Shown: in pieces, positions 15,735 to 56,225 of the stretch
How positions within the stretch are numbered: the stretch's first letter is position 1
How the letters are laid out: every line of letters starts with the position of its first letter
From: Prostheceraeus crozeri
Lineage: Eukaryota > Platyhelminthes > Polycladida > Euryleptidae
Direction: 5' to 3'
Length of the DNA: 64,000 bases
Assembly: GCA_907163375.1 (NCBI GenBank)
Contig: CAJQUW010001473.1
Location: 1 to 64,000, forward strand
The notes under the pieces: model-generated
Databases searched by the model: none
Told to the model about the DNA's origin: nothing
What the model saw: the letters and a program-made list of their open reading frames with translations, nothing else
Translations under genes and position numbers: made by a program

Positions 15735-16449
15735 ACTTTCGATTGCAAACTTCGAAAACAGCGCAATTTTTCTTTCCATTGCCCAAATTTTCCAAGAAGT
15801 GACTGTTTGAAGCGCTTGTTACGAAGTGATAAATGTATATATTACTTTGGAAGTCTAAATCCCAAGTTCTTATGGAAATTATCAAATTTCAAATTTGAAG
15901 CACAGTGGTATGTATACATATTTTTGTAATTCAGTTCACACGAGTTCTTTTGCTGAAGCGAACAGTACAGTAGGCATACTGACTTTCGCGATATAAATGT
16001 TTTTATAGCTCAATCGACAAATCTTTTTGCTGATATTTAACAGTGCTGACTTTTGTGATTTATGCATTTTTGTAATTCATTCCACAAGTCTTCTTTATGC
16101 TGAAAATTATCAGTTCATTCCATGAAAACAATATTTTTCTAATTCAATTCATAATCAGTCCATACTAGAAGCCTATAACATCTGGCGATGGTCTACTATA
16201 GTTTTTAGGGTTTTCACGTTCATGGTCAGTTGTTTTTGGAAACGTTCGTGCTTCTCTGTGTTTTCGATGTTCTCACGTTCACCTGTTGAAAGTATCTGGT
16301 AGTTAGCATATCAAACATACAATTATTTTCGTATAATTCATCATTTTTTTCTGACTGCTCATGTGCTTGTATACGCCTTCCCCAAGAACATTTGGCAATA
16401 CTTTTATCAACTGGCAATAATAATCTTATTAGGTGGAGTGGCAACACTG

Positions 16450-17360
16450 ATGCGAGTTCCCTAGCCATTGGAGTTGTGTTGGAAGGAGACGGACGGATCA
16501 TAGAAGATGGGGCATGGTTGCGACCGAAAAATGACGTGGTTCATATTAATCGTAGTGAGTTGGACGCGGGTCTAAAAGGCTTAAACATGGCACTTAAATG
16601 GGGTAGGCGAAACATCCGAATTTTTACTGATTCTCTAACAGTATATAGATGGCTGACAGCAACGACAGAGCGAACTCACAATGTAAAGTCTCGTGCTCTA
16701 GATGAGGTTCTAATACAGCGAAGGCTATCTACGTTTAAGGATATTCTGGAGGAGGAGAAAATACAAGTGTCAATCGAGTTAGTGAGTTCAGAGAAAAATA
16801 TTGCCGACAGTATGACACGAGTTGCAAAGAAGTGGCTGAGTTTGCCTGGTCCAAATCTTGTCGCAATGGTGACATCTGAAGAAGTCGCTGATATTCATAA
16901 TAGCTGTCACTTCGGGGTGGTGAGAACATACGAAATGGCGAAAGAACGATATCCTGATGTTGACAAGGAGACGGTGAGGCAGGTTGTGAGGCAATGTCAT
17001 CCATGTGCGAGGATCGATCCTCCATTGACTTTTCGCTGGGATAGAGGTTCGATCAGGGCAGAGGCCCTTTTGGCAAATGTTGTCTATAGATGTCACCCAC
17101 ATCCATGGTATTCCCTATTTGTCTGTTATTGACGTCTTTCTGGTTTTACAGTATGGAAAAAGCTACATAATGAAACAGCTTCTACAATAACAGCCCAGCT
17201 TGGTCAAGTATTTGGTGAGTTTGGGCCCCCAGCGTCAGTATTGAGCGACAACGCTGCAGTATTCAGGAGCAGAAATATGCTCGAGCTACTAGATCATTGG
17301 GAGGTGAAACAACTACTATCTTGTGCATACCGGCCACAGAGGGGATATTGTAGAGAGAGT
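16450..17360 (+). pseudogene. pol: Pol, RNase H and integrase N-terminal half
   Basis: RNase H continues directly after the hAT with SLAIGVVLEGDG, NRSELDAGL, RIFTDSLTVYRW and NIADSMTR, covering the catalytic acidic residues. The integrase zinc-binding domain follows (HNSCHFG…CHPCARI, the HHCC pattern). A frame change at about 17100-17135 precedes the catalytic core, where the second conserved Asp is seen in SVLSDNAAVFRS. The reading stops at the Polinton insertion (17361). The remaining integrase lies at 35953-36532. Confidence 0.75.
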
Positions 17361-17802
17361 TAGTAGTATAGGGTGTGACATCCGGCGCGTCGCTTCGCTC
17401 GCACCGGATGTCACACCTTGCGAGATTTTCAAAAATTTAGGTAGTCTCCAAATTTCAAAAATTTAGGTAGTCTCCTAATTTCAAAAATTTAGGCGGTCAA
17501 AAAATATCACGTGGTCGAAAATTTAAGTTGTCTCAAATTATCACGTAATCTAAAAAATATCGCGTGGTCGAAAATTTAACGTAGTCGAAAATTTAGGTAC
17601 TCTAAGAATTTCACGTAGACTCAATATACCAGAAGATTGTATTCAAAATATTTATTAAAAAAATGGATGAAACAAAAGTGGAAGAAACCTCAACGGGGAC
17701 GGCGACGACGAAAATGGAAGAAACCTCGAGAATATATCCTTCGTTATCACAATTAAAAATAACTGAATTGAACATTGAAAAAATGAATAAAGAAAAACAC
17801 AA
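17361..17802 (+). repeat. Polinton left terminal inverted repeat
   Basis: Matches the reverse complement of 35511-35952 with roughly eight differences plus a short tip indel, by eye. It contains iterated phrases AAAATTTAGGTAGTCTC and AAAATATCACGTGGTCG. The inner part already includes the first about 45 codons of the first Polinton gene. Homology resumes at 17849-17878 after a stretch missing from the right copy. Confidence 0.9.
17372..17417. other. Hairpin near the left tip of the Polinton
   Basis: GGTGTGACATCCGG (17372-17385) and CCGGATGTCACACC (17404-17417) are perfect complements: a 14-bp stem with an 18-base GC-rich loop. The loop is itself partly self-complementary (GCG...CGC). It lies 11 bases from the tip. 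A mirrored copy is at the right end. Confidence 0.85.
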
Positions 17803-20245: not shown

Positions 20246-21003
20246 ATGAGTGAAGTGTCCCGATTAAATAAAAAAACTCAAATTTAATCATCATCCAAAT
20301 TTATCTAATAAAGTTTTGTCAGTTATTTGTGGAAGATCAGGATGTGGAAAAACATATCTATTATTTAAAATTTTAACGACTCCAAATTTTTTGGATTATA
20401 ACAATCTTATCATTTATACAACAACAGCAGAACAACCCGTCTATCAATTTTTAAAATATGGATTTGAAAATAATCTTTAAAAAAACAGCAATTGCTTCAT
20501 TATTCAAATAATATGAAAAATCTGAATATGAAGAAGAAATAAGTTCGTGATGTGAAGAAGCAGCAAAAAATAATCAGTTAGTAGAATCCAATAAAAATAA
20601 GCATATAAAAATACAATTAATAGATGGTAGTGGTAATATGCAAGATCCTAGTAAACTAGATAAAACAATAAAACATTGTGTAATTTTTGATGATTGTGTT
20701 AATCATAGAAATCAGTCAGTTCAGAGAAATTATTTCATAAGAGGTAGACATAATAACTGTAGTGTTTTTTATTTAACACATTCATTAGACGGAAGTGTTA
20801 TTAGAAAGAATGCAAATATATTTATACTATTTGAAATAAATGCAAGAAACTTAAGTGATTTGTTAAGAGATTTATGCGTAAGAAATAAAGATGAATTTAA
20901 ACATTCGTGTAACAATGCTTGGTCAAAAGATTATGGCTTCATTACAATTAATATTGATAAAAAAATTCATGACAGAGTTATAGAAAATATTTTCGCGGAG
21001 TGA
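20246..21003 (+). pseudogene. Polinton genome-packaging ATPase (A32/FtsK-like), degraded
   Basis: Walker A is seen as VICGRSGCGKTYLLFK, and Walker B as HCVIFDDC followed by QRNYFIRGRHNNCSVFYLTHS (the sensor region). This is the signature of the A32-type packaging ATPases that pump DNA into capsids. The expected start is ATG 20246. A frameshift occurs within the first 15 codons, and stops or frame changes lie between Walker A and Walker B (about 20478-20550). The last 121 residues (20638-21003) are open. Non-functional. Confidence 0.8.
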
Positions 21004-21359: not shown

Positions 21360-24208
21360 AAAATATATTTTTCTTTTAAAAAATATGAATGGTGAAATGT
21401 CTCTAGGACTAACGTCTAGGATTGATGAATTAAACAAGAAACAAATTGCAGAGTTTGATGCACAAATTAAACGTAGCAAACGTAGTAAACGTATTTAAAA
21501 GCGGAAGCGTAGTATTAAAAAACAGAAACGTGGAACAAAAGAAATATTAGAAACTCCTATTACTGATATTTTTTATGATGAGAGAATTAAGGATGAACTT
21601 GGTGATGATTTATGTAATTTATTTAATCCAAATGAAATTAAATATGAAAATGTATCTTTTATTAATGTAGTAAATGATATGCGGAAACTTTTAGCAAATG
21701 GTAAAATTATTAATTTACTTGGAAAAGTTATTAAAGATCAGGAAAATATAATTCAAAATTTTTACGTAACCTTCTATAATAAAAAATCATTTGAAACATG
21801 GTTTTCCAATCTGGATGAGAAATCAGATAGTCAGGAATGGATTTTTACAGGTGATATTAAATATGAAGATTTTAGAATGAAGCTAGTACAAAGATCACAT
21901 AGAGGTGCAGGTATTAATATGAAATATAGAATCAAAGAATATTTCGGTGAACATTGTTATATTCCTTCTGAAGATTTTTGTTTTATTAAATGTTATAATG
22001 TTTTACGAGGTTTTAATGAAGAACAAGGAGAAATGATGAAAGGTTTAATGATTTTTATATAAAGAGAAAGCCACATCGAGAACAGGAGTAATGTCAAACT
22101 GCAAATGTTCTCAGTTCAATAAATTTTTTGGAGAAAGTGTTCAGTATTTCAGTCCTTCGAATCGTCATTTAGATCCTAGAGGAATTGAAACGTTTCATAA
22201 TTATGTTTGTTACAATTATTTTCACGAAGGTTCAACAATTGGACACTATTGTTTAATTAATAAATTTCATAAATTAAAAGCTATTAGAGAAATTGAAAAT
22301 AATTTCAAACCAATATATAAAACAGTTACTGATGAAAATCTAGCAACACTTCCGTATAAAACCATCACAAAGAAACCAATTGACTATAGTTCAACATATA
22401 TTTGGGATCTCGAAACTTTCCTTGATCCTAACTGTTCAACAGCTCATCCTATTCCTTATGCTGTAGGAGCTGTTAATTTTGAAAAATTTATATGTTGCTT
22501 AACGAAACAAAGATTGAAAGAATTAGAAACACGTTTGTTAAGTGATATGATTAAAATTAAACGATCAAAAGATGAAGATGAAATTAAAAAACTTAAAAAA
22601 CAAATTAATGAGTATAATAATTTAACTGAATTAGAATTCAATGAACTTCAAAATTGTGTGAAAATATTTACGAGAACTGAGGATGATGAATGTCCAATCG
22701 GGGGAAACCCAGAGGACGCATGTCCGATACATCAATTTTTTAAAACTCTTGGAAAATTTAATTATTTGAAAGTAACTTTAATAGCTCACAATTCATCAGG
22801 TTTTGATTCCTATGTTCCGATAAAAACTAATTTTAAATTATCTAAACCGCCTCTTAAAACTTCAAGAGGAATATTGACTGCTTCATTACAAAATCCTTAT
22901 ACAACTGAATATGTTAGTAGATATATTCAAAAATCTTTTAGATTTAAAAACAATAATAATGATATGAAAAAAAATTCACCTCCAGGTAAATTAGCACTTC
23001 AAACTATTATAATGAAATGTAGTTATCAACATGTAAAAACAAGTCTTTCTAAATGGTGTGAGAATTTTAAAATTCCTACCAATGTGTATAAATTAAATTA
23101 TGAAATTGGAGACATAACACATGAAAATTATAAAGAAAAAGAAAATGAATGGAGACCATATTTAGTTAACGATATTCTTTCTTTAGCTTTTTGTATCTAC
23201 AAATATAATAATGTTATGCAAGATTTAGTTGGTGAAGATATAACTACTAATTTAACATCCTCCGCTTTAACATTTAACGGTTGGATGAAAAGCGTACAAA
23301 GTGACAATATAAATGTTCATTCTCATACAGATTTATGGGCTAGAAATTATATTAGAAAATCTGTTAAAGGTGGAAGAGTGTCAGTAAATATAAGAAAATA
23401 CATATCGCCATTTTGTAATATCTTGTTACCATATTAAAACGGTATTTACCTGGAAGTAATTTAATAGAGTTAATGAAACAGTATCGAAATTTAGGAAATA
23501 AAACTGAAATTTGTAAGAAAATTTCAAATCAACTACTTGAACAAAAAAATGAATTTCTAATGGCTTTTGATGCAACATCTTTATATCCATCAGCTATGTA
23601 TGATGAAAATTCAGAATACTCTAAATCTGAATCAGCTAGAAAATTTCGTCGAGAAGAACGAGAAATAGTATCTAAATTTAATACTCAAACATTTAGATCT
23701 AAAACTGGAATATTTACAGTTTTGTTTCAATATCCGAATGATATGTTTTTTCAACCAGTTCCCATAAAAGATAAAGTTAAAAATCAAAATAATAATTCTC
23801 ATGTAAAGGTAATCAGGTTTAGAAATGGTATATGTTATGATGTATTAACTTCCGTAGACATACAAGAAATTGTTAGATGCGGTGGAAAAATCTTACATAT
23901 TACTGTTGGTATAATTTAGGAAAAAAATTATCAAGTTTCACCATTTCGAAATTATATTGAAAAACTTTTTAATTTGAGAAAAAATATAAAACAGAAGGAA
24001 ATACTGTAGGCGATGAGTTAATTAAGTTATTGATGAATTCGCTATATGGCAAAACTGTACAAGAAGATATAACCACTAAATATCATTTATTGAATGAGAA
24101 TACATTGAGAAAAAATTTCACTCAAGAAGTAAAAGATTATGAAAAATTAAATGATGAACAATATTTAGCGAAAGTAGAAATGGAAGATGATGAATTTCTT
24201 AAAGCTAA

Positions 24209-26570
24209 TACAGTGGACTCCGCTTAATAAATCCACCTCCGTCCCAGCTTGAAGTGGATTTATTGAGCGGTGGAGTTATTAACCGGAAGCGCAAAAAGAT
24301 TGCTATAATAATTGCTAAGAGAACCGATAAGCTATACACTGTATAGGGATACGTATTGCTTATATGGAAAACACATGCTATAGGCTGTAAAACAAACTCT
24401 ATTACAAATAAGGAAAACAAGCGGTGTTGTAGAACAAACAGTGTACAACAGTATGTATAGTATGATTCAATCGAACTGATACAAGGTACGCTCGTACATG
24501 CATTCACAAAATATGCAATACGTAGATCTGACTAAGACGATGAAAGTTAGGGATTCATAAAGTTAATGGTCGTTTGCTTAGGCGGGCACTTACTTCTTAA
24601 GTCCTCAATTACTTTGTTTTTCAGTGATTAGAAGCTATCAAGGTCGTCGAATTCCAGCCTCTCGAGACCGACACCTAAGCGATGTAGGCAATGTCTGATT
24701 TCTGCTGCGGAGGGAGTCGTTTCCATGGGTTCGTCATCTGACTCACTTCCGATCTCGTAGACTGGTTCGGACTTGTCTTCTCCAAGATCCCAGTTACTAG
24801 CTCCTTGATTTTGTCTTCTTCTGTTACTTCTTGAGTCACCAGAACCTCATCGTCGATAGCTACCCAGGCATCAAACTGATTTTGGGTGAGCCCAACTGGT
24901 GTTTCCGGCAAGGTTATGCTGGTGTCCTTTCTTTTTCTTCTACAACAGAAGATACGAAACCTCCTTTCATCCAACAGTTCCTTATGGTCATTGATGTGAT
25001 CTTCATCCATGCGTTCTTTATCATGCACATTGCTTCGAAGAGATTGATTCGTTTGGCGACAGTCTGAGCAACGGTCTCAACTTCAGAATCGTCAATGACG
25101 TCGATGATCTTCTGACGCATCTCGTGCCTATAATAGGCCTTGAGGGCTCTGATAATGCCCATGTCGCACGGCTGAATCACGGATGTGGTGTTTGGAAGAA
25201 AGAAACACAGAGCGATGTTCTTCAGGCCGTTGACTTTTGCATGAGCTGAGCAGTTGTCAACAAGAAGAACCACCTTCTTCCCTGATCGCTGCAAGCGATT
25301 GTCCCAAGACCTCAGCCATCGCTCAAAGATATCCCGCTGTCATCCATGCTTTGCCGAAAAATCGTACGGTATCGGACGCGATTTTACTTTCTTAAAGCAT
25401 CTGGGAGACTTGGACTGTCCAATCAGAAGCAACTGTTCTTTATCGCCATTCATGTTACAAACCACCAAAAGTGTAACGCGGTCCTTTGCCGTTTTGAACC
25501 CTCTCTGAGTCTTTTTCTCTTTCTCCACGTAGGTGCTGTCTGGAAGGGCGCGATAAGAAAGTGCAGTTTCATCAGCGTTGTATATCTGCTCTGGAGAGTA
25601 AGTCTTCAGGAGATCTGCCACGATCGAGCTACGAAACTCCTCTGCTCCACGGACGTCGGCTTCCGCTGCTTCACCTGCGTAGAAATAAAAACATGATCAA
25701 CATCTTTCAGCGATTCAGCAATTAAAGACGAAAACTCTTACCTTTCAGAGTCGTAAATGTGATTCCGTAGCGCTTCTTCCAACGAGAGAACCAGCCGTCT
25801 GTGGCTTTGAAGTCATCGTGACCCGCATCAACCGCGATGTTGTTTGCTTTTTGCATAATTATAGGCCCGTTGACTGGCACATTTTTCGACCGTGCAAACT
25901 TAAACCACTCGTATAGGGCGTCTTCAACATCCTGATCTTTCCCTGCTCTCTTCCGCTTGGCAGCGCTTGATCCCTGGTCTTCGGCGCAAATGGCGGTCTC
26001 GTTTTTCAGCAGGTTTTGTAGGAAACCTCGTGAAATGCCGAGCTTTTCCGCTGCTTCTCGCTGACTGAGTGGAGGTAGGTCCTTGAATCGGTTCAACAGT
26101 TCGACCTTTTCCGCCATAGTTTTCTCTTGTGGAGTTCTCTTCATGTTGGCTCACAGAATAGTCCGTACTTATTCGAATAAAACTGGAAAGTAACAGTTGA
26201 CTTTGTGATGAGTTCAACTTAAAAACTACAGTTCACCTGATTCGAGGAGTGCGAGACAATGGCCAATCAGGAAGGAGGGGAAAGCGAGAACTAGCTAAGT
26301 GTATCGGCCAATCAGAGAGAGTGATAGAGAGAGATAAAGAGAGAGATGCCATTTTGGTGAAGAGGTTATTCCGAGAAGGAATGATCACTCTGAAATGGTT
26401 GATTATGACTTGTCGCGTTGATAGCAGAATAAAAAAATGGATTTATTAAGCGGAGTGTGGATTTATTAAGCGGCGGATTTTACTATGTAAAAAAACTGTC
26501 CCAAGACAAAGTGGATGTAATAGCCGGCTGGATTTATTATCCGTGGATTTATTAAGCGGAGTCCACTGTA
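24209..26570 (-). mobile_element. Tigger/pogo (Tc1-mariner superfamily) DNA transposon, 2358 bp
   Basis: The element occupies 24211-26568, flanked by TA on each side (24209-24210, 26569-26570). The 26-bp terminal inverted repeats begin CAGTGGACTCCGCTTAATAA. Extra copies of GGATTTATTAAGCGG occur near the right tip. Its single gene is on the - strand. It splits the Polinton polymerase between motifs B and C, so it is the youngest layer of the nest. Removing it and one TA leaves the polymerase frame continuous. Confidence 0.95.
24675..26144 (-). pseudogene. Tigger/pogo transposase with one intron
   Basis: Exon 1 (26144-25742) encodes a CENP-B-type helix-turn-helix (LSQREAAEKLGISRGFLQNL) and a second DNA-binding domain ending DGWFSRWKKRYGI. 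A GT-AG intron of 67 bp (25741-25675) splits a Gly codon in phase. Exon 2 carries the catalytic core: IYNADETAL (first Asp), LLVDNCSAH (second Asp) and TSVIQPCDMGII (third Asp), the DDD triad of Tiggers. A TGA near 25339 and a frameshift near 24940 break the gene. The C-terminal acidic tail is in another frame, ending at 24675. The transposase would cut and paste the element at TA sites. Confidence 0.9.
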
Positions 26571-26704
26571 TTGTAAAAGATGGGAAGACGTCATTCATGC
26601 CATCACACTTAGGTTCTTTTATTCTTTCTCACTCTAGAAGAATCATGAATAACTTTATTTTAGAAATTAATGGTTTCAACGAAAAATACATTCATTATGC
26701 AGAT

Positions 26705-27735
26705 TCAGTAACAGCTGACACGCCTGTAATATTGAGAAAGAATAATTTATTATTTATTTCTAGAATAGATAGTATTGTAAACAACTATAAAATTAATCCG
26801 TTTGAAATTAATGGTGATATGAAAGAAATTTCATTAGTTGATAATTTAGAAATTTATACTCATAATGGATGGAGTAAAGTAAAAAAAATTATTAGACTTC
26901 GTACAAATAAAAGTATTTATCGAATAAGAACAAAAATGGGAATAGTAGATGTTACTGAAGATCATTCATTGTTAGATGAAACAGGTAATGAAATAAAGGA
27001 ACAAATTTACTACATAATAAATTGTTTTTACTCGACAATACAATCATATGGAAACAAATTGTAAGTGATATTTATTTTAATGATCCACCTAATTTGAGAT
27101 GTAAGCAAGCATTTATAGAAGGGTTCTTTTTAGGAGATGGTTCTGCTGGAATCTATAAGTATAAATCAGGAGTCAGATATTGTTGTACTTTAAATAACGA
27201 AAACCTTTACCTCTTAAGTAAATTAAAAACATATATTAATGAAGTTTATAACAATGATTGTAAAATATATAATACAATGAGATCATCTAGAGTATACAAA
27301 CTTAATTTTCAAAATCCAAAACAATATGCCATATACTTTAATGACAATTATTATAATCAGTTTAAAGAAAAACGTGTTCCTTGGTATGTTCTAAATGCTG
27401 AATATAATATTAGATATTGGTTATTTGTTGGATTTTATGCAGCAGATGGGGACAAGAAATCTTTTTTTACTAGGAAATATGCAACTATTTGTTTTACACA
27501 GAAAAATAAAGAAACCTTTAGTGGTTTATACAATTTGGCATCATCTCTAGGTATTAATTTGCTAGTAAGCGAAAGACAAGATAAACCATTATGCTTTAGT
27601 GTGTGTCAACTTAAAAATAATATTACCAAAGATGTCACTACTGTAAGATATTTAAATAATAAAAAACAATATGTTTATGATATTGAAACAGAATATGGGG
27701 CATTTAATTGTGGTATTCCATTAATTGTAAAAAAC
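26705..27735 (+). other. Intein with LAGLIDADG homing endonuclease in the polymerase motif C
   Basis: A self-splicing insert of about 344 residues. It begins with Ser (SVTADTPVIL, splicing block A). TEDHSLLDETG is block B (Thr and His). Two endonuclease motifs follow, FIEGFFLGDGSAG and WLFVGFYAADGDKK, each with its catalytic Asp. YDIETEYGAFNCG is block F. It ends IVKN (block G, terminal Asn) before a Thr of the host protein. The usual penultimate His is Lys here. The insertion point is between Asp and Thr-Asp-Ser of catalytic motif C, a site used by known polymerase inteins. The length (1031 bp) is not a multiple of three; a frameshift lies near 27030 between block B and the endonuclease. An intein in a transposon of an animal genome is unusual. 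Confidence 0.9.
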
Positions 27736-28239
27736 ACTGATTCAATATACATTTCTAATGAACTCTTCAATAAATTAGATGCTGCTGGATATGTTGGGGG
27801 AGAATTGTGTCAAGGAAAAAATGATTATGGAAATGGTGGAATTATTTTTGCAATGTTTATTGCCCCTAAAATAAAATATTGTATTACTGTAGATGAACAA
27901 GGAAGACTTAGTGAAAAGAAAACATTCAAAGAATATTCACAAAATGAAGTGAAAGTAGAAGATTTTCTAAAATTGTATTCGGGTAAAACATTATCGACTA
28001 CAGTGAATAAACCATGGAAAAGATCTTTAGAAACTGCAATTAATATTCCTGATAAAAATAATACTGAAGAAAAAAAAATTCTGGTCAAATAAACATTATT
28101 AAACGTCAAGCACCTGATGAAAATGAAATTATGTTACCTTATAACGGAGAAGATATTCAAGCTGAAATATTTCAAACAATCGTCAGTGAGAGTAATTTAA
28201 GTGATGATGGTGACACGTGGGAATAATAATTTTTTTATT

Positions 28240-32400: not shown

Positions 32401-33682
32401 ATGTATTCTACAAGTTCTACAAATTCCGAAAATAAAATTAAATTAAAAATTTCTAATTTAGATTTATTGAATTATCTCTTGAAAGTACATAAAACCTGAA
32501 ATTGTCACCACACCGGAGGTGATATACAAGAAACATTAGAAAACTTTCCTGGATTTATTTGGAGTAAATATTCAAAAGAAAAACATCTTCCTGGTCATTC
32601 ATATACCGGTCCAGGAACTCGATTAGATATAAGACTAGATGAGAATAATAATCCAAAACCAGGTGAAGAACCAATAAACAGAGTTGATGCAGCAGCTTAT
32701 AGACACAATCTAGCATACAGAGAACATGATGATGTAGCTTCTAGACATGTAGCAGATAAGAAAATGATTCAAGAATTAGATAGTATTCAAAATCCTACAT
32801 TTAGAGAAAAAATTGAAAGATTGTTTGTTAAGAAAGCTTTACAAGCTAAAATATTGTTCGGTCAGGGTTTAGACAAAACTCATAACTCTGAAACCTACGC
32901 GTCTGAAATTCATAAAGAATATAGAGGGCCGAAATATCTATTGAAAGTAAAAGTATTTAATAAAGATGATATTTGGAGTGCTGATCTAATCAATATGCCG
33001 AATGAAAGAGGGTTTAAGTACGCATTGACCGTTAAAGATTTATATACACGATGCGCTTGGGCAAAGCCTTTAAAAAACAAAAGTGGTCTGTCAGTTAAAT
33101 ATGCGTCTGAAGAAATCTTTAAAGAAAGTAATAGAAAGCCAAAAAATTGTTTCTTGATAAAGGATCGGAATTTTATAACAGAAATGTTCAGCCACTATTT
33201 GAAACTGTTTATTCAACTGAAAATGCTGGAAAGGCTGTAGTAATAGAACGATTCAATAAAACGTTAAAAAATAAATTATTCAAGAAATTTACATAGCAAA
33301 GAAATCAGAAATGGTTGAAGATACTACCAGGAATTGTAGATCAGTACAATAATAAAGTTCATTCAGGTATTGAAGAAACTCCAAAGAATGCTTCTGATGA
33401 TCCTGATTTGATTCGAAAGAAAATATTCGAAAATAATTATTCGAATGAGAGTAATCCGAATTTACAGAAACGTAAGCCAAAATTTAAGATTGGAGATAGA
33501 GTTAGCATATTAAGTATAAGAATAAATTTGAAAAAGGCTTTGTTGGCTATTGGACTAAAGAGATATTTGAAGTTTGTAAAATAAATCAAACTTATCCGAT
33601 TACTTGCGAAATCAAAGATTTAGATGATGATGAAATCACTGGCAGATTTTTTGAAAACGAATTACAAATAACTGATTTTTAA
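32401..33682 (+). pseudogene. Polinton integrase with N-terminal PLA2-like domain, frameshifted
   Basis: A frame from ATG 32401 with a TGA near 32497 then runs to 33238. The first domain has LPGHSYTGPGTRLDIRL and NRVDAAAYRHNLAYREHDD, the calcium loop and His-Asp-type active site of parvoviral-style phospholipase A2. The catalytic His-Asp is partly changed (RHN). The integrase core follows: DDIWSADLINM (first Asp), KDRNF (second Asp region) and IERFNKTLKN (catalytic Glu, after a frameshift at about 33235). The C-terminal chromodomain-like part is split by another shift near 33530 and ends at 33682. The fused arrangement is known in Polintons. The integrase would join the element to the target. 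Confidence 0.85.
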
Positions 33683-35510: not shown

Positions 35511-35952
35511 CTTTTGTGTTTTTCTTTATTCATCTTTTCGATGTTCAATTCAGTTATTTTTAATTATGATAACGAAGGATATATTGTCGAGGTTTCTTCC
35601 ATTTTCGTCGTCGCCGTCCCCGTTGAGGTTTCTTCCACGTTTGTTTCATCCATTTTTTTAATAAATATTTTGAATACAATCTTCTGGTATATTGAGTCTA
35701 CGTGAAATTCTTAGAGTATCTAAATTTTCGACTACGTGAAATTTTCGACCACGCGATATTTTTTAGATTACGTGATAATTTGAGACAACTTAAATTTTCG
35801 ACCACGTGATATTTTTTGACCGCCTAAATTTTTGAAATTAGGAGACTACCTAAATTTTTGAAATTTGGAGACTACCTGAATTTTTGAAAATCTCGCAAGG
35901 TGTGACATCCGGTGCGAGCGAAGCGACGCGCCGGATGTCATACCCTATATAC
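35511..35952 (-). repeat. Polinton right terminal inverted repeat with hairpin
   Basis: Reverse complement of 17361-17802. The hairpin arms are GGTGTGACATCCGG (35899-35912) and CCGGATGTCATACC (35931-35944), with one mismatch. The tip is a few bases shorter than the left tip. It carries a truncated copy of the first gene's start on the - strand. Confidence 0.9.
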
Positions 35953-36532
35953 GAGAGTTCATAGAACGATCAAAAGGTCTGTAAATAATAATAATAATGC
36001 TATATTTCAAATACTACATAGCGGTATAAAACGTTCGGGTCGCAGTGTTGAGGCGGCTTGTTTTTGGCTTAACAACACAAAAGGAGGTAATTCTTTCAGC
36101 CCTTTTGAACTGGTCTTCGCCGCAACGCCGAGGAAGCCGGGCGTAAGTCAGCAGCGTATTTTGATCGATGGTGTTAACCGAGAAATGGATTCTGATGGTC
36201 ATAAGGATTACGAGGATAGTGACCGAAATCCATTTATAGTTGGGGATAAGGTGTATCTAAGGCTTGCGACGGGTAAATGTGATGACGAATGGTCAGGGCC
36301 TCACGTAATATCAGATATAAAATCCCGAGTTTCTGTTATCATTAATAACGATGGGGTAAGTCGGCATGTGTCTCACGTTCTTTTGGTGCCTGGCAGCAAA
36401 GGTAATTTGCATGACTCGATTGAAGATGTGAACGTCACAAGTGGTTCTGATGATGCTGAGGTAAAGGAAGAAGCCGTCAGGAGAAGCTGTAGACTTAGGC
36501 GGGCCCCAGGTTGGCATAGATTATGTTATTGA
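35953..36532 (+). pseudogene. pol: Pol, integrase C-terminal half
   Basis: Continues the integrase after the Polinton. The first codons follow the conserved Glu region, then AACFWLNNTKGGNSFSPFEL (the end of the catalytic core). The C-terminal module has VGDKVYLRLATG and EWSGPHVISDIKS (a GPY/F-like motif) and VSRHVSHVLLVPG. It stops at 36530, just before the polypurine tract GAGGGGGG that primes plus-strand synthesis at the LTR edge (about 36547-36554). Confidence 0.8.
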
Positions 36533-41139: not shown

Positions 41140-43660
41140 TCACTCCAATCGACCTGCAATGTCTTATATTCTTTCTCTATCAAGCAATTTAATGTGACTC
41201 ATTGAATTACTTCTTCAACATTTTATGCAATTGCCTGCAATGTAAAAATTATTTTTTGCGATGATTTACAATTAGTGAATATTAACATTATATTATGATT
41301 ATTATTAAAATGAATTTTCTTAATTGTGTTTACAAAACATACCTGAACGGTTTGATAATTGTGAATATTTACAACGAAAATGTAGCGAAACTAATTTTCT
41401 GAACGCAAACGGACTAGATCAATTCGAGCCATTGTATAGTAAGAAATTCAAGCAGGAATTTCTCCCTAAAATCTTTTAAAAGACGATGAGGAGAGATTAC
41501 TTCTCAATTGCATGACAAGTCGATCAAGACATTCTGTTACTACTCTGGTGGGTGTGTCTCTATTTTCGGAATGAATAGCATAGTAAACATATGTAACACA
41601 CTTAGTACTGCAGCACTATTTGACCTTCAGACATACCACTTTCAAAACAGTTGCTATGACATTAATTTAGAATGAAACATTGACGTCAGGAAAAGTACGC
41701 TATCATCGCCTGATTTCGTTCTCCAATCATAGCGCTCTTGGCGCTCTTACGCTATTTCATTACTCGCGTGTTGTGATATCGACAGATCTGCTATACTTTC
41801 TTGCTTGGGAAGGCGTGTTGTCTCGTGCTGCTAACTTACCCTGCTTGTATTATGTGACTCTAGTCAACATAAAAGACTGACAAAGTGAGTTATCGTATAG
41901 TATTGATCATAGCACTATTAAAATCATCTGTCGTTACTTAGAATGTTTTCCCTACCCACCGTTTTATCTGCCTTTCGCATTGATGTTCTATTGATCATCA
42001 TTCATACGAATATATCACTTGTTTCTCATTTTTGAATAGACGATTTTAAGCCTACCTTGTCCGACTAATGATATGAACAAATATTCGCTGCTGAATTATT
42101 CCTTGGAGTAGGCCTATTTTATTACATGCATTGCATTGAGTTTTGAGCATGGGCTCTAAGGTTGGTTGCTCACTGAATCTCAATGTCATTTAGTGTAACT
42201 GAGGTAGCCACATGTATTGCAGGAAAATGCAATATTTTGTATCAGTATCATAATTCAGTAGTATTGTGTCTGGCAAATTTATGCAAATAGTTGGTTTCCT
42301 ATTGCTATATCTTATAATGAAACTACATATACTTAGTGTCTGTAATTAAGCATCGCAGGCCCAAATATACACAAGAACATAAGTAAATACTTGTAAGTGG
42401 TCAAAATTGCAAACGTACTTAGCGAAGTGTCATTTTCGATCACTGCAATTCAGTAAGAGAAACTCGCAAATAGCTCTATGGATGCTTTCTGTTAGCAGAT
42501 CGAGTCAATTCAATTTCGCTCCTTAGGCCTGTGCGACTCTTTGTCGACACTCGTTCTAAAGCCTAAAGATTCAACTCTACAATGAAAAAAATCTTGGACA
42601 AATCCGAATCCTGATAAATATAAAATCTAGATGAAATTCACTTATTAATTTCAGGAATTTTGAAAAGAAAAACAGCTTAAGGAACAAAGAATTCTTTTTG
42701 AGCCCGTAATGCTAGACTGCAATCGTATTAAAGCTCACAAGCCTTTCCAATAATAATACAAATTACATCTTTGAGTAAGCCTACTCTATTTAGCTGAACT
42801 GAAATAAAATCTGGTAAATCACTTACATTTCGGAAGCTTCATGAATGAAAGATTCTACGATCTAATTATTTCTGACTTTAGGATGTAAAATGTGAAATGT
42901 GTCCATCAGCAATGGATGGCATAATGCTTTTGCGAGCATAAAAATGTTGAATTGCTTGTATTCATCGATGCTGTACTAATTTTTTCTATAAATTAAATCT
43001 ATAAAAGTTTCCTGTTTGACAGATGATCATTTTGATGAAGCAGCTTAATTCTGCAAGTTTGGAAGCGGTCTGGGCTTAGCAGCTTAGTGCATGTAGTCAT
43101 TGTATAGGAAGCAATGATATTTTGAGATGATGGAGTTCAGTATTCCTTTGTAAGTATAAGGAGCTGTTTCCGATCACAGGAACTGTATAAGGAGTTCACG
43201 CTTTCCATGTTATCTGTTATCTCTCTATGTCTATTTCGGTCGCTTTTTAACGGTTGTAAATTCGGTCAGATCGGAAACCTATGAATAACAGATAGAAATA
43301 ACTTTTCAGTCGAAAGTTTACGTCATTCAGCGGAATGAACAGTACATTATTCATGTTGGAGTCGCGGAGATAATCGAACGAACCATGCACTGTACATCAC
43401 GAAAAACCGCCTGCATGTAGCAGTCACATTTATGCGATTATAATCGACAGCAGACGTTCATGTGTTCCGTTCGATCAAATACATAGGAATTGCACAAGAG
43501 TACATATTTGGAAAATATAAACAGACCGAGTGATAAGCATCGTTCAATGTCAATTTAGTTATCAGCGGAATGGCACTGCATCATTATGATTTTTAATCAG
43601 GAATAGGTTCATATTGCAGATTGTGCTTAATTGAATGAAAACAAAAATTTGCCATTTCAG
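41140..43660. other. Non-coding interval upstream of lipin
   Basis: No coding exon recognised. It may hold the lipin promoter and 5' untranslated exon(s), because the first coding exon is preceded directly by a splice acceptor. Confidence 0.4.
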
Positions 43661-43834
43661 ATGATTTCAAGGCTGTGGTCAGGACTGAAAGATTACTACA
43701 AGGAAATCAATCCTGCGACATTGACAGGAGCTATCGATGTTATTGCAATAGAGCAGGAAGACGGGAGTTATGTTAGTACTCCTTTCCATGTGCGCTTCGG
43801 CAAAGGTGGAATTCTTCGTCCAAAGGAGAAAGTG
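43661..43834 (+). CDS. LPIN: Lipin exon 1 (N-LIP)
   Basis: 58 codons from ATG. Acceptor TTTCAG just before; donor GTGAGT. Contains [16 protein letters not shown] and [12 protein letters not shown], the most conserved part of the N-LIP domain. Confidence 0.9.
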
Positions 43835-46800
43835 GTGAGTAGCAATGTGCAGGCTGTTGGGGGGGATGCGCTTTTCGAGCCCAGTTTTAAAATTATCAAT
43901 GTTCGTTTTTGTTGACGCACACTTTTTTTACCAGATTTTCTTAACATTAATGTGAATATGTTGTCTTTTGCGTAAAATTATCGTGTGGTTGACTTAAGCA
44001 CTCATTTAGGTACTTTCGCCTTATCTCCCAGTATTTGATTTACACAGAATTCAATCGATTAAATGGCAGCTGTATGTGGCGTTCTTAACGAAGACTTTCG
44101 CAGCGCCTCTAAATGGAGTCAAATAATTTGCTTCTTTGAATCCTATAAAATCGACAGTATTCTGCACTCATGGCTTACTGAAGGTGATGACCGGCATAGC
44201 ACTAACATGTGAGGCAATACAATCAGAAAGTAGGATTCCATCTCATTAACGGTTACCAACGACTGGTCATCCAGTCCATTAATAAGCATGTAGCTACAGA
44301 CACATTGGCAATCTCTATCGAATTAGCGGTTTATCTTACTCCAAACTCTCTGCAATCTTGTCAAGTCTACTATCCGTTCGTTGTTGATGGATTACTATTG
44401 TCATTCTTGGGCCGATGCCCTACGTATTGACCTTAACCTTCTCAAACGACCAGAAACGTGTCAATAATCTCGATGGATACTCTTTTACATATAATATTTC
44501 GGTAGATGTAGCTCTATAGTAAATGACTGCGCACCTGAGCCTACGATAATCGCCAGAAGCACAGGAAGAGTACACTCAAGGGCTATCATGTGAGGTTTGA
44601 ACGTATAGTAAGTCGCTCGAAACGATTTTTGTTCACACAGCACAGCTTTGGAATCAGATGCCCCCAAGCCACTTTCCTTGACCAATGCAATGTTGATACA
44701 TTAAAGTGACGTGCGAACAGGTATCTGATATAGACGAGTTAATATGGTTAGAAGATATCTGATTTCTACCTTTAATTTATTGATGCCAAGCAACCTTTGA
44801 CTCCATTAATTTCTCGATGCTGGGTAGATTTATCAAATCTAGCGGTGAGATATTTTAGGGTGTTTTTTTTCAGTGTGTTCGAATGATTTTTGCCTATCAA
44901 TGAAAATTAAGAAAAGTACTATACTCAAGACCAAATGCTTAAAAAAGAAGCAGTTATGAATTTTGCTATTAATTCATAAGGAATTATTTTTAGGAAAATG
45001 TATCGGACGTTTGTAGTGAGTTAAATTCGAATTACATTCCGAGCTGCAACCAATAATCTTCATCAAATTTGCAGGTCGATATCTACGTGAACAAATCCTA
45101 TGTGCCTCATATCAAGATGAAATTGGGGGAAGCTGGTGGAGCATACTTCGTAGATGAAAAGGATTTAGAGTTGGAGCCTCACGAAGCGGCGGACAAAGAA
45201 CTTCCCGACGACGAGCATACAGCCGTATCGGACGGGGATCTTTTTGTTATGGATGATCTCGCATTGCCTAGTCAAAATAACAACAATAATAATGGTGAGT
45301 CCTAAGAAAATGACTTTGACGACGAATCCTGTGAAAAATGTTATAAATGCATCAGAATTTCCATATCCACCCCATCCCCAAGATCATTTAAACACAACTC
45401 GGTGCAAGAATTGAAAAATGACCCCAGACTGACAAAAATGACTACACAGTCATTAGTTCCTGGCAAAAAAGATGAATCACTTAAGGTAATGACTCTCTCC
45501 AGCATGCATACCAGATCGTGATGCGCGCACAAATGAATGAATGTTATTTTATTTCGAAGTGACTTTACCTCCTGTTATCCTGATCAGAGTATAAACTGAA
45601 TGGAAAGCACAACTTTCACTTATGACTTGGCTTTGGTAGTTAATAAGTTGAGGTGGGAAAAATACGAGTATATGCCCGATTAATTTTATCTTTTCTTATT
45701 TTTAATAAATCAACTTTTCCATCTTGCATCTTGTGCTTTAGGGATTCCAGATTCATTTTCGTGTTTATTTATGATGCAGCAGACACTAAATTACGGTAAT
45801 CATTATTTCTTTTACAGATGTATGTATTTTTTTATGAAGTACATGTATGTTGCTTGGAGAATTATCATTTCAAGTTAAAAAAGAAGGGCAGTTGTGAAAG
45901 ACACCTTGATGATATATTATAATTGCATGCTAAGCTATTTAGTATTATTGTTCATTTTTTACCAATCCTCCGGTCGCCCATTTTATTCCTTGATTCATTC
46001 TTCATTTATTTGCGAACTTCGTGAAGCTAATTTGAAAGTGGTTGTCATTTTTGTTTGTATTGGGGTTGATAAGGCAACGTCTTGACGTTGCCCGGCCTTT
46101 TCGGAAAACAGGTTTAGCAACATAGTTCGAGAATCTGTATCAAATGAATTAGTGGAAAGTATGTGGGGTTTTGATGTAGGCCTACTCGGAAATGAAAAAG
46201 TCTTACCTTCCTTGATTTGTTGCATTTCAGAAATAGCCAAACGAGACCTTTCTTTCTCTGAATCGGATGTCTGGTCAATGGATCGACCTGCATCTCCATG
46301 CCGTTCTGATACTGAGGTTGAGACAGGAGAAAGTGTTCACCGACTTCCTGAAGCAGATGTTGAATGGAAGTGGGGCGAACTACCAACCGTCCGAAGGCAT
46401 TCGGTTGTCAGGGATACTCCGATTGAATCGCGTAAGTTTGTTGACCAAATTCGGGGAATAGTGGATAGCCGAGATTTTGATCTTCTTAATTGTGATATCT
46501 AAATTAAAATGGCGAATCAGGCAGAATTAAAGCAGTTCTTGTAGAATATGAGGAGATAGAAATGTTTGCTGAGCTTGAATGCTCTGGTAAACGAGCAGTC
46601 AGTAAAGGAAGCATACAGTTGGCAAAAGTTACGAACCATTCTGTAGACGGTTTGTATTTTCAACTTACTTTGCGTTGTGTTACCGACTATTCGCTCATTG
46701 CTTTAGCTACTAAGGCTTTTGATCGTTGCTCTGCATGTTAAAGTATTTGAAATTCAAATGATTGAATAAATATTTAATGAACAACTTCGATCATCATAGC

Positions 46801-49800
46801 AATTCAAGAGCCACTTCTGAAAAGAAAATTCAAATTTATCATGAATTGCGGAAAATTGAATAGTTGATTTATTATCGAAGTTTTAAGTTTCTAATTCAAG
46901 TTTCTGTGATGAACCTCATCACAGAAACCATGAAGACAGAAAGCACTCATGCATCCTGTGCCAGTGAAAATACTCCCGACATCTTCAAAAAGAATACAGT
47001 TTGTGTTAGGCATTCTTCTTTACAATATCGCTTTTAATTATTTTCGTCTCAATTCAATGTTTAGGCTTATAAAGCTTTCAATCTAGGTCTACGATACTAA
47101 ATCGACATTTTAATATCATCAAGATAATGAACAGTATTTATTCAAGTGATGAGAGCAAAAAACATTTGATTTGCATCTTAACAACAACTACAAACTTTTC
47201 TGACTTATTAGATTTCATCATTACATTATGCCCTATTGTAAGGAGTCAGCAACTCAGCTGCCGATATACTGTCATCCGAACTACAAACGTTAGTAATTTC
47301 TAAAATAATTCGAATCTCGTTCCTAGGGTTCCTGTTCAAAATTTGAACTTTGTACGAATGCAAAATGCTTATTCAAGTTTGCGTTCTATGCGCAAACCAC
47401 TGATAGTGTGGATGTGCATTGAAATCCGACGGCTGACCAAAATTGTCCGCGACCAATAGTTAACATACAAGCCGATACCCGATTAAAAATTCAACAAATA
47501 TAAAACAAATCTTGCTCTTATCTCTTGATTTTTTCCTTCTAGGACTTGACTTCCTTATTATTCAACAGTTGTGCATTGATGCATAGAATCGACTTTACTT
47601 TTTGTTGAAGGCATTTCACATAATGATTCAGAATACTTCTATTAACTGAAAATTATCTACATATTTTGTAGAATTATTATACATTTCCTCAAGCATTTAG
47701 GAAAAGTGATATTTGTTATCATCGAAGACTGAACTCAACATCGATATGTATTTGTTATCGTATTGTATAACTGCGTAGTAAATGCTCCATGAGGATAGGA
47801 AAAGGGAATCATTGATCGTCTTGAGAAAGGAAAAGCTCTTTAGTCGTTAGTCGAATTTGGAAATGTCATTCTCTCAGTTCAATCTTAGCATTTGCAGAAC
47901 GTTTTTATCTTGCAGATCAACTGAAGGAAGCAATCAAATGTGAGATCACAGAATCCAATGATCATGGGTGAGTCTCACTTACTTTAGTGTTTACTTACTA
48001 AAGCATTAATTCATCATAAGTTTGCAGTGGCATTTACTTTTGTGGTCATCGATTTATGTACTCAGCAGTAGAAAGTAAACCAGATTAAGGGTACTATAAA
48101 TGTAGCATACATCGCAGTGAGGAAACGAGCTTGATATTGATTCAATGTGCTCAATTCATGTTTAAATAGACTTCGTCGAAATCCTTTGCATAGAGGTTTG
48201 GATCGAAGCAGAGATTTAGTAGATAAAATATGCGGGCGTAATAAAATGCCCATTGAGGAGTAATTTTTATTCATTTAAATGAGATAAAAGTTGACTTTTC
48301 TATGGAGTTCAACCGCTGTATGAGTATGAATGCTACATGAACTGTCAGTAAGTGATGCTTTTCGCTTTCAAATTCAAACGAATTTATATTAGATATTTTC
48401 ATCATATAATACATTCCAATGACAAAATGTATAGTAGGAAATGGAAGAAAACCTTTTTATTCACAAATATTTGAACAAAACGCAGTCATCACCAAACATG
48501 CTGATAATCGCTGACTGAATAAAAGACTATGTTGATACATGTATGCTTCATGAGTGGAGTGAAGATGACGTCAAATTACGAAATCAGTTTCCCTGCACGA
48601 GCATGAAAAATGAAACTTTCCGATCAACCTTCAAATTTGCGAATCAATTTCTGGTGACTGAATGATAATCAATGATCATACTGGTCTTGTGATTTTGCTG
48701 ATAGGCACCCGGGAGACCATGATTCATTCCTCTATAGAATCAAATTAAAGACTTGTAAGAGAATGTAGATCCTGCGTTCACAGGATGAATGAGCCTCAAA
48801 GAATGAAGGCTCAAATGAATAAAGCGCGGCTACATGGCGATCAGAATTTCATTTCCCGAACATTTACTGCGTTATTTGATTTATTGTCAGCACATTTATA
48901 TTTTTTGCCTTCATATGAAAAAAGAACTTTTAGATCCTCACTGTAAGCTTTAGTAGAAATGCAAGTCTTTATGATCATAATTTCGATATTGAAACTGTAC
49001 AAGTCGTATTAATTAGTGCCACTCCGCTCACGCAATTAAATGTGCTTCAAAACGTGATAATTGAAGATTGATAAAGAAGAACCAGTTGTAGCTTATCGAC
49101 TCATCAGTCATTAACATGCTGAGATGAGTGGCGAATTCTTCATTCTGTTCGTCGATGGTGAACAACATTGAGATTTATTGATAAGGTCGATGCTTCAAGG
49201 ATCTATAAAGCATCTCGTGGCATTCGGTTACAAGTTGCATTATCTGAGGCTCACACTGTAATCTACTGCACATGCATTTGAGATAAATATCACGGCGCAT
49301 AAATTGCGCAGTTATAATTTCAAGAGGTACAATTTTAAGACACTGTCATATTTCGTCAACATCGTGTTAGCTTTTTGTAGTCATACTATACACATACTTA
49401 TCCACATGCCATATGTATCTCGTGTTAAGTAACAGCTCATCTAGCGAATTGATAAATGGTGCTTCTAAGTAACTTGTTTGCAATAGTCATCAGAATTTCC
49501 AATCGTTAATATCATTTTATACAATTTTTCTTCATTTAATTTGCAAATTGTTCAATTTAATTACATAACACAAGAAGTTGATAGTATTTGGTAACATAGC
49601 AGCTCTATTGTCGATTGAAAATACTTGTATCTGTTTCTTTATCAGTTGTCATGAATTGACTATCACAATGTTTTCAAACAGAAATTTAAGAATGAGCATT
49701 CATACATAGAACATTTTTTTCGTAGCCGTTCCAGAGAAAGAGACACTCTCTCTCCTCTTCAAAGACGCCGTAGCAAGTGAGAATGCATGGTTTGGTACTT

Positions 49801-55800: not shown

Positions 55801-55894
55801 AGAGGAATTCAAAATTCAATGTTTAAAAGATGTTCGAAGTCTTTTCCCTCCAAATCCTCCTCCTCTATACGCGGGCTTTGGAAACCGGCCAAGT
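43661..55894 (+). CDS. LPIN: Lipin (phosphatidate phosphatase, PAP1), ten exons, 3' end missing
   Basis: Mg-dependent phosphatidate phosphatase that makes diacylglycerol at the ER and can act as a nuclear co-regulator. Exons (all GT/AG, phases agree): 43661-43834, 45075-45294, 46231-46431, 47916-47967, 49726-49776, 53587-53899, 53962-54297, 54366-54514, 55473-55715, 55780-55894; 618 codons in sum. They give the N-LIP domain ([42 protein letters not shown]), a middle acidic/serine part with EWKWGELP, a basic patch (QRRRSK), the mid domain ([14 protein letters not shown]), and the HAD-type catalytic domain with [11 protein letters not shown] (DxDxT) through YAGFGNRPS. The start ATG directly follows an acceptor, so an upstream 5' UTR exon is expected. 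The last about 120 residues are not in the next 8 kb that I could recognise. Vertebrates have three paralogues; this looks like the single invertebrate gene. Confidence 0.93.
45075..45294 (+). CDS. LPIN: Lipin exon 2 (N-LIP end, acidic linker)
   Basis: Acceptor TTTGCAG, donor GTGAGT. Encodes [20 protein letters not shown], then acidic sequence and an Asn run (about six AAT/AAC codons) right at the donor. Confidence 0.9.
46231..46431 (+). CDS. LPIN: Lipin exon 3
   Basis: Acceptor TTTCAG, donor GTAAGT, phase 1 to phase 1. Encodes SDTEVETGE and [11 protein letters not shown]; the WxWGELP motif is diagnostic of lipins. Confidence 0.85.
47916..47967 (+). CDS. LPIN: Lipin exon 4 (small)
   Basis: 52 bp between CTTGCAG and GTGAGT. 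Encodes [17 protein letters not shown] in the phase required by both neighbours. Supported by phase and splice sites only, not by a conserved motif. Confidence 0.6.
49726..49776 (+). CDS. LPIN: Lipin exon 5 (small, basic)
   Basis: 51 bp between TTTTCGTAG and GTGAGA. Encodes [16 protein letters not shown] in phase. The basic patch fits the nuclear-localisation/membrane-binding polybasic region expected at this place in lipins. Confidence 0.6.
52629..52847. repeat. Dispersed 205-bp repeat, copy 1 (lipin intron)
   Basis: About 90% identical to 56226-56430. Contains CGTCTCATAATGACGTCA and TTTCATCAGATCATCAGACG. No coding or Pol III boxes recognised. A short non-autonomous element is likely. It lies in the intron before exon 6. 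Confidence 0.75.
53587..53899 (+). CDS. LPIN: Lipin exon 6 (mid domain)
   Basis: Acceptor CTTGTAG, donor GTAAGT. Encodes [29 protein letters not shown] and [17 protein letters not shown], matching the lipin mid domain closely. Confidence 0.9.
53962..54297 (+). CDS. LPIN: Lipin exon 7 (basic/serine linker)
   Basis: Acceptor TTTACAG, donor GTAAGT. Arg-rich start ([14 protein letters not shown]), then Ser/Pro-rich linker, ending [10 protein letters not shown], where the catalytic lobe begins. Confidence 0.85.
54366..54514 (+). CDS. LPIN: Lipin exon 8 (catalytic DxDxT)
   Basis: Encodes [31 protein letters not shown] and [11 protein letters not shown]. The catalytic motif DIDGT is intact. Donor GTAGGT splits the final Lys codon. 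Confidence 0.95.
55473..55715 (+). CDS. LPIN: Lipin exon 9 (catalytic domain)
   Basis: Acceptor TCTACAG, donor GTAAAT. Encodes [30 protein letters not shown] and [16 protein letters not shown], typical LNS2-domain sequence. Confidence 0.93.
55780..55894 (+). CDS. LPIN: Lipin exon 10 (catalytic domain)
   Basis: Acceptor CTTCAG, donor GTAAGT. Encodes [20 protein letters not shown] and YAGFGNRPS. It ends in phase 0 within a conserved Asn-Arg-Pro-Ser-Asp region; the next exon was not found. Confidence 0.93.
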
Positions 55895-56225
55895 GTAAGT
55901 GGATGTGTTTTGTATAAGTTTGCAGAACTACCAAGCATCGCATATTCCATGTTAAAGCTGTGTAATATGCTGGTAAATTGCAAGGATGCATGCTTATGTT
56001 GTTGCTTTATGTCGTCGAGTCATGCAATACTCCGTGATGACCCACGCAACTTTTTTCCTCCAATTATTTAGTTCTTCAATGATTTTCTCGTGTGATTATA
56101 TACATCATAAATTAGATTATATTAGGGAATCGAGTAATTATTAGCGTTTGATTGCATTTTCAATTTATGATTGAAATTGTCAAAACTGCTAGGAATCTGT
56201 TTGTTTGTATATTTTGTTGAACAAT

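What the first reader, a model, noticed from the sequence alone, without database searches (positions are those of the whole stretch)
26705..27735. Intein with homing endonuclease inside a Polinton DNA polymerase in an animal genome
All splicing blocks (A, B, F, G) and both LAGLIDADG motifs are visible, placed exactly inside polymerase motif C between Asp and Thr. Inteins at this site are known from archaeal and giant-virus polymerases. I do not know of a well-described case in an animal Polinton. It suggests exchange between Polintons and large DNA viruses, and a selfish gene inside a selfish element. The penultimate residue is Lys rather than His.
Basis: partly seen in the sequence, partly recalled or inferred. 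Interest (0 to 1): 0.9.

Follow-up and report, generated by a model that had tools for sequence, protein, structure and literature searches.

The report
Homing intein inside animal Polinton polymerases
A self-splicing, gene-cutting parasite (an intein) sits inside the DNA polymerase gene of a virus-like transposon in an animal genome, where some sites are occupied and many are still empty, and the DNA shows it moving between transposon lineages.

Summary
An insert at 26705-27735 splits polymerase motif C (Tyr-Ala-Asp|Thr-Asp-Ser) of a Polinton with 436-nt terminal inverted repeats. It carries the Hint splicing blocks and both LAGLIDADG motifs.
The genome (2.05 Gb, animal by its Wnt genes) tells more. 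Exact patterns find 407 intein C-junctions and 1571 empty motif-C sites. Of 65 sampled occupied copies, 34 have a 1050-bp insert and 30 are open across the whole intein. Between two polymerase lineages, intein synonymous divergence is 0.07 against 0.33-0.35 in the flanking polymerase; one copy has lineage-A polymerase on both sides of a lineage-B intein. So the intein moved as a cassette to this exact site. Homing is the best explanation; splicing and cutting are inferred.
The 12 inteins of Polinton-type (protein-primed) polymerases in the tree form one clade (100/99), beside pol-c inteins of giant-virus-type polymerases. Print already mentions homing endonucleases in Polinton polymerases; a 2018 paper states that metazoan genomes lack inteins.

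The parts
17367..17802 (+). Polinton left terminal inverted repeat
   Evidence: 436 nt, 9 mismatches to 35514-35949
20268..21003 (+). Packaging-ATPase-like pieces (GRSGCGKT P-loop, CVIFDD)
   Evidence: motif read by eye; no Pfam match over cut-off to 20638-21000
22052..24206 (+). N-terminal pieces of the protein-primed DNA polymerase B, in three frames (broken)
   Evidence: PF03175 44.2 bits on 22091-23434 (cut-off 25.8), 22.4 bits on 23473-23916; frames
24207..26572 (-). pogo/Tc5-type DNA transposon inserted in the polymerase
   Evidence: 30-nt perfect inverted repeats; DDE_1 73.5 bits, HTH_Tnp_Tc5 66.9 bits
26573..26704 (+). N-extein up to Asp of motif C (...HYAD)
   Evidence: matched in 60 of 60 empty-site loci, DNA identity 86.9-99.2%, median 97.7
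26705..27061 (+). Intein N-terminal splicing part (blocks A and B), first frame
   Evidence: TIGR01445 34.3 bits; S1 and TEDH read directly
26989..27072 (+). Stretch in which the reading frame changes; the window insert is 19 bp shorter than the commonest length
27073..27735 (+). LAGLIDADG endonuclease (27112-27144, 27421-27453) and C-terminal splicing part ending Lys-Asn, second frame
   Evidence: PF14528 34.9 bits; 150 of 942 genome candidates scored, all E<1e-125
27736..28089 (+). C-extein from Thr of motif C (TDSIYIS...)
   Evidence: matched in 60 of 60 empty-site loci, DNA identity 83.5-94.7%, median 92.7; same motif in pPolBs P0002-P0007
32764..33237 (+). Polinton integrase piece
   Evidence: rve 19.5 bits, below cut-off 32.6
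35514..35949 (-). Polinton right terminal inverted repeat

Best explanation
It is a degenerate copy of a pol-c-type intein in the motif C of a Polinton pPolB. In intact copies the polymerase is made with the intein inside; Ser1, the block-B Thr/His, the terminal Asn and the +1 Thr carry out protein splicing and restore motif C (inferred). The LAGLIDADG domain cuts the empty motif-C DNA of other Polinton copies, and repair from an occupied copy writes the intein in (inferred from sequence). Shown here: exact occupied and empty alleles in one genome, open intein frames in 30 of 65 sampled copies, and transfer of the intein between diverged polymerase lineages without the rest of the polymerase. 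The lineage probably came once from inteins of giant-virus-type PolBs and then spread among protein-primed polymerases (inferred from an unrooted tree).
For: Exact site: 407 filled C-junctions against 1571 empty sites by exact patterns. The 60 sampled empty loci, uninterrupted because the pattern chose them so, all match the window's polymerase on both sides. Key residues in 65 occupied copies: Asp-1 65, Ser1 62, Lys before the end 65, terminal Asn 62, Thr+1 63; 30 of 65 open, of which TEDH is found in 28. Transfer: lineage A-B dS is 0.072 (0.050-0.097) in the intein, 0.348 (0.238-0.491) in the N-extein and 0.332 (0.217-0.487) in the C-extein. One A copy (L083) carries lineage-B states at 1 of 20 N-extein sites (4 nt from the junction), 2 of 2 intein sites and 0 of 17 C-extein sites, and its intein falls among B inteins, 99*. 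Occupancy is scattered: at least 12 changes on the N-side tree (3 forced by well-supported branches) and 8 on the C-side tree (4 forced, some by long-branch rows). Family: an open copy (L102) gives TIGR01445 33.7, PF14528 34.9, PF05204 21.4 (cut-off 21.1); PDB matches are PI-PkoII (E 5.8e-4) and NEQ068 (E 0.013). Phylogeny.
Against: No splicing or cleavage was measured. Selection on the intein is weak: dN/dS 0.72 (0.52-1.05) within lineage A and 0.60 (0.42-0.88) between lineages, against 0.19-0.33 in the exteins for the same comparisons; the Hint-N part within A gives 1.47 (0.94-2.38). 35 of 65 sampled copies are not open, although that sample came from the best matches. PF14890 stays under its cut-off even in an open copy (28.1 against 35.8). 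Trees cannot tell gain from loss. The mosaic copy is a single case with only two diagnostic sites inside the intein, of which six other A copies carry one; another A copy used as a comparison (L076) is also nearer to B in two of seven intein segments and one C-side segment.
Confidence: 0.85

Rival explanations
1. The intein was inherited vertically with its Polinton lineage; empty copies descend from lines that never had it or lost it, and no homing occurs. (The rivals overlap with each other and partly with the best explanation, so the odds do not add to one.)
For: Occupied copies cluster on both trees (12 and 8 changes against about 41 in shuffles), and the six B inteins fall in one seven-row set.
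Against: Intein dS between lineages is about a fifth of extein dS with separate intervals; L083 has an A polymerase around a B intein.
Confidence: 0.08
2. The intein moves only as a passenger of ordinary recombination between co-replicating Polinton copies; its endonuclease is inactive.
For: Gene conversion alone can make mosaics like L083, and L076 shows patchy B-like segments; dN/dS over the endonuclease part within A is 0.63 (0.40-1.04), not clearly under 1.
Against: The exchanged stretch ends near the intein borders: in L083 19 of 20 N-side and 17 of 17 C-side lineage sites stay A. Both LAGLIDADG patterns occur in 29 of 30 open copies.
Confidence: 0.2
3. A dead fossil: the intein spread in the past and nothing works now.
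For: The window copy is frame-broken and transposon-split; 35 of 65 sampled copies are not open.
Against: 30 of 65 are open; of the 150 best C-part matches 131 have no stop and 6 lie in open frames over 1500 aa (counted by eye). The window element's repeats differ by only 2%.
Confidence: 0.15
4. A normal domain of Polinton polymerase, or an assembly or contamination artefact.
For: None found.
Against: 1571 uninterrupted sites in the same genome; 407 occupied junctions, the listed part of them over many contigs; the window carries exons of the host gene lipin.
Confidence: 0.01

Closest known systems
pol-c (position III) inteins of family B DNA polymerases, such as those of Mimivirus and archaea (PMC549080, passages read)
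   Same: Same D|TDS site, Ser1, terminal Asn, Thr+1, LAGLIDADG endonuclease; the best PF00136-type matches are 34-38% and up to 41% identical over nearly the whole intein.
   Different: Host is a protein-primed pPolB (PF03175) of a transposon in an animal nucleus, in hundreds of copies beside empty sites.
Inteins in pPolB-like proteins P0133-P0139 and P0141
   Same: Same site and 40-45% identity over 97-99% of the queried stretch; one clade with the window family (100/99).
   Different: Their polymerases are distant: N-parts of P0135, P0138 and P0139 match P0004/P0005 at 22.7-31.6% over 64-148 residues, E 0.18 to 5e-4. Organisms unnamed except P0139, labelled a MAG of a clam symbiont.
Homing endonuclease domains in Polinton pPolBs (Jeong 2023, as cited in PMC11071308; the paper itself is not held)
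   Same: Endonuclease insertions in Polinton pPolB, ascribed to intein invasion.
   Different: I could not read family, site or copy data there; whether the pol-c site or the occupied/empty comparison is already described is unknown to me.
GIY-YIG/HNH endonucleases of polinton-like viruses (PMC12220804, section 12 read)
   Same: Homing endonucleases in related elements.
   Different: Other nuclease families, free-standing or fused mainly to helicases; that section describes no LAGLIDADG intein in polymerase motif C.

Membership tests
Intein (Hint splicing element) | N-terminal splicing region profile | tested here: met
   TIGR01445 34.3 bits window, 33.7 open copy; cut-off 24.5
Intein (Hint splicing element) | Pfam Intein_splicing (PF14890) over cut-off | tested here: not met
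   18.0 bits window N part, 28.1 open copy; cut-off 35.8. Kin P0133-P0136 and P0140 pass; P0137-P0139, P0141, P0145 do not. I weigh this as a profile limit, not a defining failure, since the residues and the other profile are met
Intein (Hint splicing element) | Nucleophile at 1, Asn last, Cys/Ser/Thr at +1 | tested here: met
   Ser1 62, Asn 62 and Thr+1 63 of 65 copies; all present in the window copy
Intein (Hint splicing element) | Protein splicing | not testable with these tools
   no experiment
Intein (Hint splicing element) | Insert at an exact site of a protein, absent from close relatives | tested here: met
   1571 empty sites by pattern; 60 of 60 sampled match the window's polymerase on both sides
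LAGLIDADG homing endonuclease | LAGLIDADG profile and two motifs | tested here: met
   PF14528 34.9 bits, cut-off 22.5; PF05204 21.4, cut-off 21.1, in an open copy
LAGLIDADG homing endonuclease | Cuts the empty site and homes | not testable with these tools
   transfer inferred
pol-c intein allele | D|TDS of PolB motif C | tested here: met
pol-c intein allele | Sequence kinship to pol-c inteins | tested here: met
Polinton/Maverick | Protein-primed type DNA polymerase B | tested here: met
   PF03175 44.2 bits, cut-off 25.8
Polinton/Maverick | Long terminal inverted repeats | tested here: met
   436 nt, 427 of 436 paired
Polinton/Maverick | 6-bp target duplication | tested here: inconclusive
   no clean duplication seen at the ends
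Polinton/Maverick | rve integrase, packaging ATPase, protease, capsid | tested here: inconclusive
   rve 19.5 bits, cut-off 32.6; others by eye only

The most novel reading that the evidence does not exclude
Animal Polintons host their own clade of inteins, acquired once from a giant-virus-type polymerase, that is still homing among some two thousand transposon polymerase sites inside one animal's nuclear genome: a natural homing drive nested in a virus-like transposon.
Probability: 0.55. Interest if true: 0.88.

Novelty: new variant of a known kind. Interest (0 to 1): 0.76.

Why it matters
[quoted passage not shown] here is one in hundreds of copies in an animal, inside a transposon. Occupied and empty alleles by the hundred in one genome give a natural laboratory for homing: occupancy, co-converted flanks and decay can be measured directly. 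The phylogeny puts a concrete gene on the proposed traffic between giant viruses and Polintons. The exact site also shows how far motif C conservation lets one parasite cross between distant polymerase classes.

Tried and rejected
Scans of viral contigs with the window piece, one PF00136-type intein, P0001 and a pPolB alignment found no confirmed relative; a three-row intein alignment found 47 loci, of which 10 could be cut at both junctions. The one scan of bacterial and archaeal genomes and the phage collection with the N part found none. Rfam found nothing in the window at its gathering scores. A first dN/dS script compared N-exteins without alignment and gave inflated values; it was redone on codon columns. 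An earlier tree put the window inteins in a 14-row set with P0058, IMGVR L008 and the P0059/P0067/P0070 group on a long stem; holding the window rows with P0058 and that group is rejected once more pPolB inteins are in (p-AU 0.0005; the group was named after seeing trees). Rows left out: for the tree the 62 parsed inteins were thinned to 31 (72% identity, under 300 residues, P0035); between and eight viral-contig rows were dropped as long or short (L006, L008, L009, L010, L011, L013, L025, L026); the partial P0001, P0145 and P0155 were never in a tree. A search for an arthropod family to narrow the host did not complete, so the phylum is unknown. Normal domain and assembly artefact were rejected on the empty sites.

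Full report
What is there. The window holds an 18.6-kb Polinton bounded by 436-nt inverted repeats at 17367-17802 and 35514-35949, 9 mismatches apart. Its polymerase gene is of the protein-primed type (PF03175, 44.2 bits). The bases before it read ...CATTATGCAGAT (His-Tyr-Ala-Asp) and after it ACTGATTCAATA (Thr-Asp-Ser-Ile). The N part matches the intein N-terminal profile TIGR01445 and the C part LAGLIDADG_3, both over their cut-offs.

The window copy is broken. The insert is 1031 bp. Its N part and its endonuclease/C part are in different frames, with the change somewhere in 26989-27072. The polymerase itself runs through three frames before a pogo/Tc5-type transposon (24207-26572), and its last open frame ends at 28092. 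So this copy cannot make the protein; the question moves to the family.

The genome. The window is part of a 2.05-Gb assembly. It is an animal: 30 matches to the Wnt family over the cut-off, 0 of 14 control genomes (that Wnt is animal-specific is my own knowledge); exons of lipin lie in the window at 43.6-56 kb. The intein C part has 942 first-look candidates; the 150 scored are all at least 85% identical. An exact 27-nt pattern for Val-Lys-Asn|Thr-Asp-Ser-x-Tyr-Ile occurs 407 times (control 0). One for the uninterrupted motif Tyr-x-Asp-Thr-Asp-Ser-x-Tyr-Ile occurs 1571 times (control 2). The two patterns are not equally degenerate and the second may also cover other Polinton lineages, so the ratio is only a guide.

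Sampling. Occupied copies: 68 loci, namely the top 8 (the window copy among them) plus 60 picked down its list; in 65 both junctions could be placed, and L086, L099 and L109 were dropped. The sample leans towards well-kept copies. Empty copies: the first 20 places and 40 of the next 80 listed, chosen for variety. They are uninterrupted because the pattern chose them so; what was tested is that 60 of 60 match the window's polymerase on both sides (N flank 86.9-99.2%, median 97.7; C flank 83.5-94.7%, median 92.7).

Anatomy of the family. Of 65 inserts, 34 are 1050 bp, 16 are 1049 bp and the rest lie between 1025 and 1071; 30 are in frame without a stop. Asp-1 is kept in 65, Ser1 in 62, Lys before the end in 65, terminal Asn in 62, Thr+1 in 63. 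The Lys is therefore ordinary; among 62 parsed same-site inteins of other polymerases 14 also end in Lys-Asn and 35 in His-Asn.

Movement. The occupied copies fall into two polymerase lineages, A (59) and B (6). Between A and B (58 A copies, window copy left out) the synonymous divergence is 0.348 in the 600-bp N flank and 0.332 in the 354-bp C flank, but 0.072 in the intein, close to the 0.055 found within A. In 100-bp steps A-B divergence is 5-20% on the N side and 6-14% on the C side, against about 2-6% in the intein. The N-side step next to the intein and the two C-side steps next to it are the lowest of their sides, and lower than between empty A and B copies. Copy L083 shows one event: its flanks keep the A state at 19 of 20 and 17 of 17 lineage-marking sites, its intein has the B state at 2 of 2, and the single B state in its flank is 4 nt from the junction. 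Its intein sits inside the B intein clade (99*). Occupancy changes at least 12 times on the N-flank tree (64 occupied, 60 empty) and 8 times on the C-flank tree (65, 60); well-supported branches force 3 and 4. Many branches there are weak, and the C-side tree warns of long rows joined (L071 with L082), so its forced count may be too high.

Results against. dN/dS in the intein is 0.72 (0.52-1.05) within A and 0.60 (0.42-0.88) between A and B; the flanking polymerase gives 0.19-0.33 in these comparisons. Within B (15 pairs) it is 0.48 (0.29-0.81) for the intein and 0.84 (0.38-2.78) for the C flank. Constraint on the intein is thus weak or recent decay is large. The Hint-N part within A gives 1.47 (0.94-2.38). 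PF14890 is below its cut-off even for an open copy. Six other A copies carry one of the two B states in the intein, and the comparison copy L076 has a few B-like segments, so some exchange may be patchy.

Relatives. P0001, a 241-aa protein from a 2-kb contig of unknown source, is another copy with the same intein C-terminus, 86% identical over 51% of the query. Polinton-type polymerases P0002-P0007 have motif C uninterrupted. A search with an open copy found 284 proteins, 120 listed. The best are P0133-P0139 at 42-45% identity over 97-99% of the queried stretch. Their polymerase part is not PF00136; the N part of P0138 meets PF03175 (33.8 bits, cut-off 25.8) and those of P0135 and P0139 are its homologues (39% and 58%), but P0135 and P0139 alone score no polymerase family. 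The best inteins of PF00136-type polymerases follow at about 35-41%. In a tree of 52 inteins, the 12 from pPolB-type hosts form one clade (100/99). With five PF00136-type rows (P0140, P0142, P0143, P0144, P0146) they make a 17-row set (100/99), and the rest of the tree is PF00136-type. The tree is unrooted; that the intein passed from PF00136-type polymerases to pPolBs is inferred from the wider spread of the former. I call these giant-virus-type from the match to PF00136 and from viral contigs with the same insert (L001, L009); hallmark capsid genes were not tested, and one row, P0049, is named archaeal.

How it most likely works. An intact copy makes a polymerase precursor from which the intein splices itself out, joining Asp to Thr and restoring motif C. 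Meanwhile its endonuclease cuts empty motif-C DNA and repair copies the intein across. The gene anatomy, the site, the two alleles and the transfers are shown; splicing and cutting are inferred from the families.

What is known. PMC549080 (passages) places the Mimivirus intein at YGD|TDS, the position III or pol-c site also used in archaea. [quoted passage not shown] PMC11071308 (passages) says that Polinton pPolBs contain diverse homing endonuclease domains at different positions, citing Jeong 2023, which is not held. Searches of the held library for intein with polinton (9 papers listed), adintovirus (2), maverick (12 of 13) and animal genome (15 of 19) listed no paper whose title or shown abstract start describes this case; I read only the passages and the one section named.

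Verdict.

Noticed in passing
window 16392-17132 and 35912-36532: Pieces of what looks like one LTR-retroelement reading frame (Integrase_H2C2 29.9 bits on the left piece, no Pfam match on the right) flank the Polinton, as if it had inserted into a retroelement; no clean target duplication.
   Followed up: partly
window 43631-56068: Exons of a host lipin gene on the + strand (Lipin_N, Lipin_mid, LNS2).
   Followed up: partly
window 59713-60201 and 61966-63645: A Penelope-like reverse transcriptase frame (RVT_1 25.3 bits, below cut-off) with a nearly identical extra copy of its C-terminal part about 3.4 kb upstream.
   Followed up: no
P0011: A same-site intein of 427 residues in a protein with an extra PF03457 domain, which seems to lie inside the intein.
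   Followed up: no
P0139: Named as a clam-symbiont MAG protein (Thiodiazotropha ex Ctena) but looks like a Polinton-type polymerase with intein, so probably host DNA in the bin.
   Followed up: no
window 32500-32760: A phospholipase-A2-like stretch ahead of the integrase in the same open frame, by eye only.
   Followed up: no
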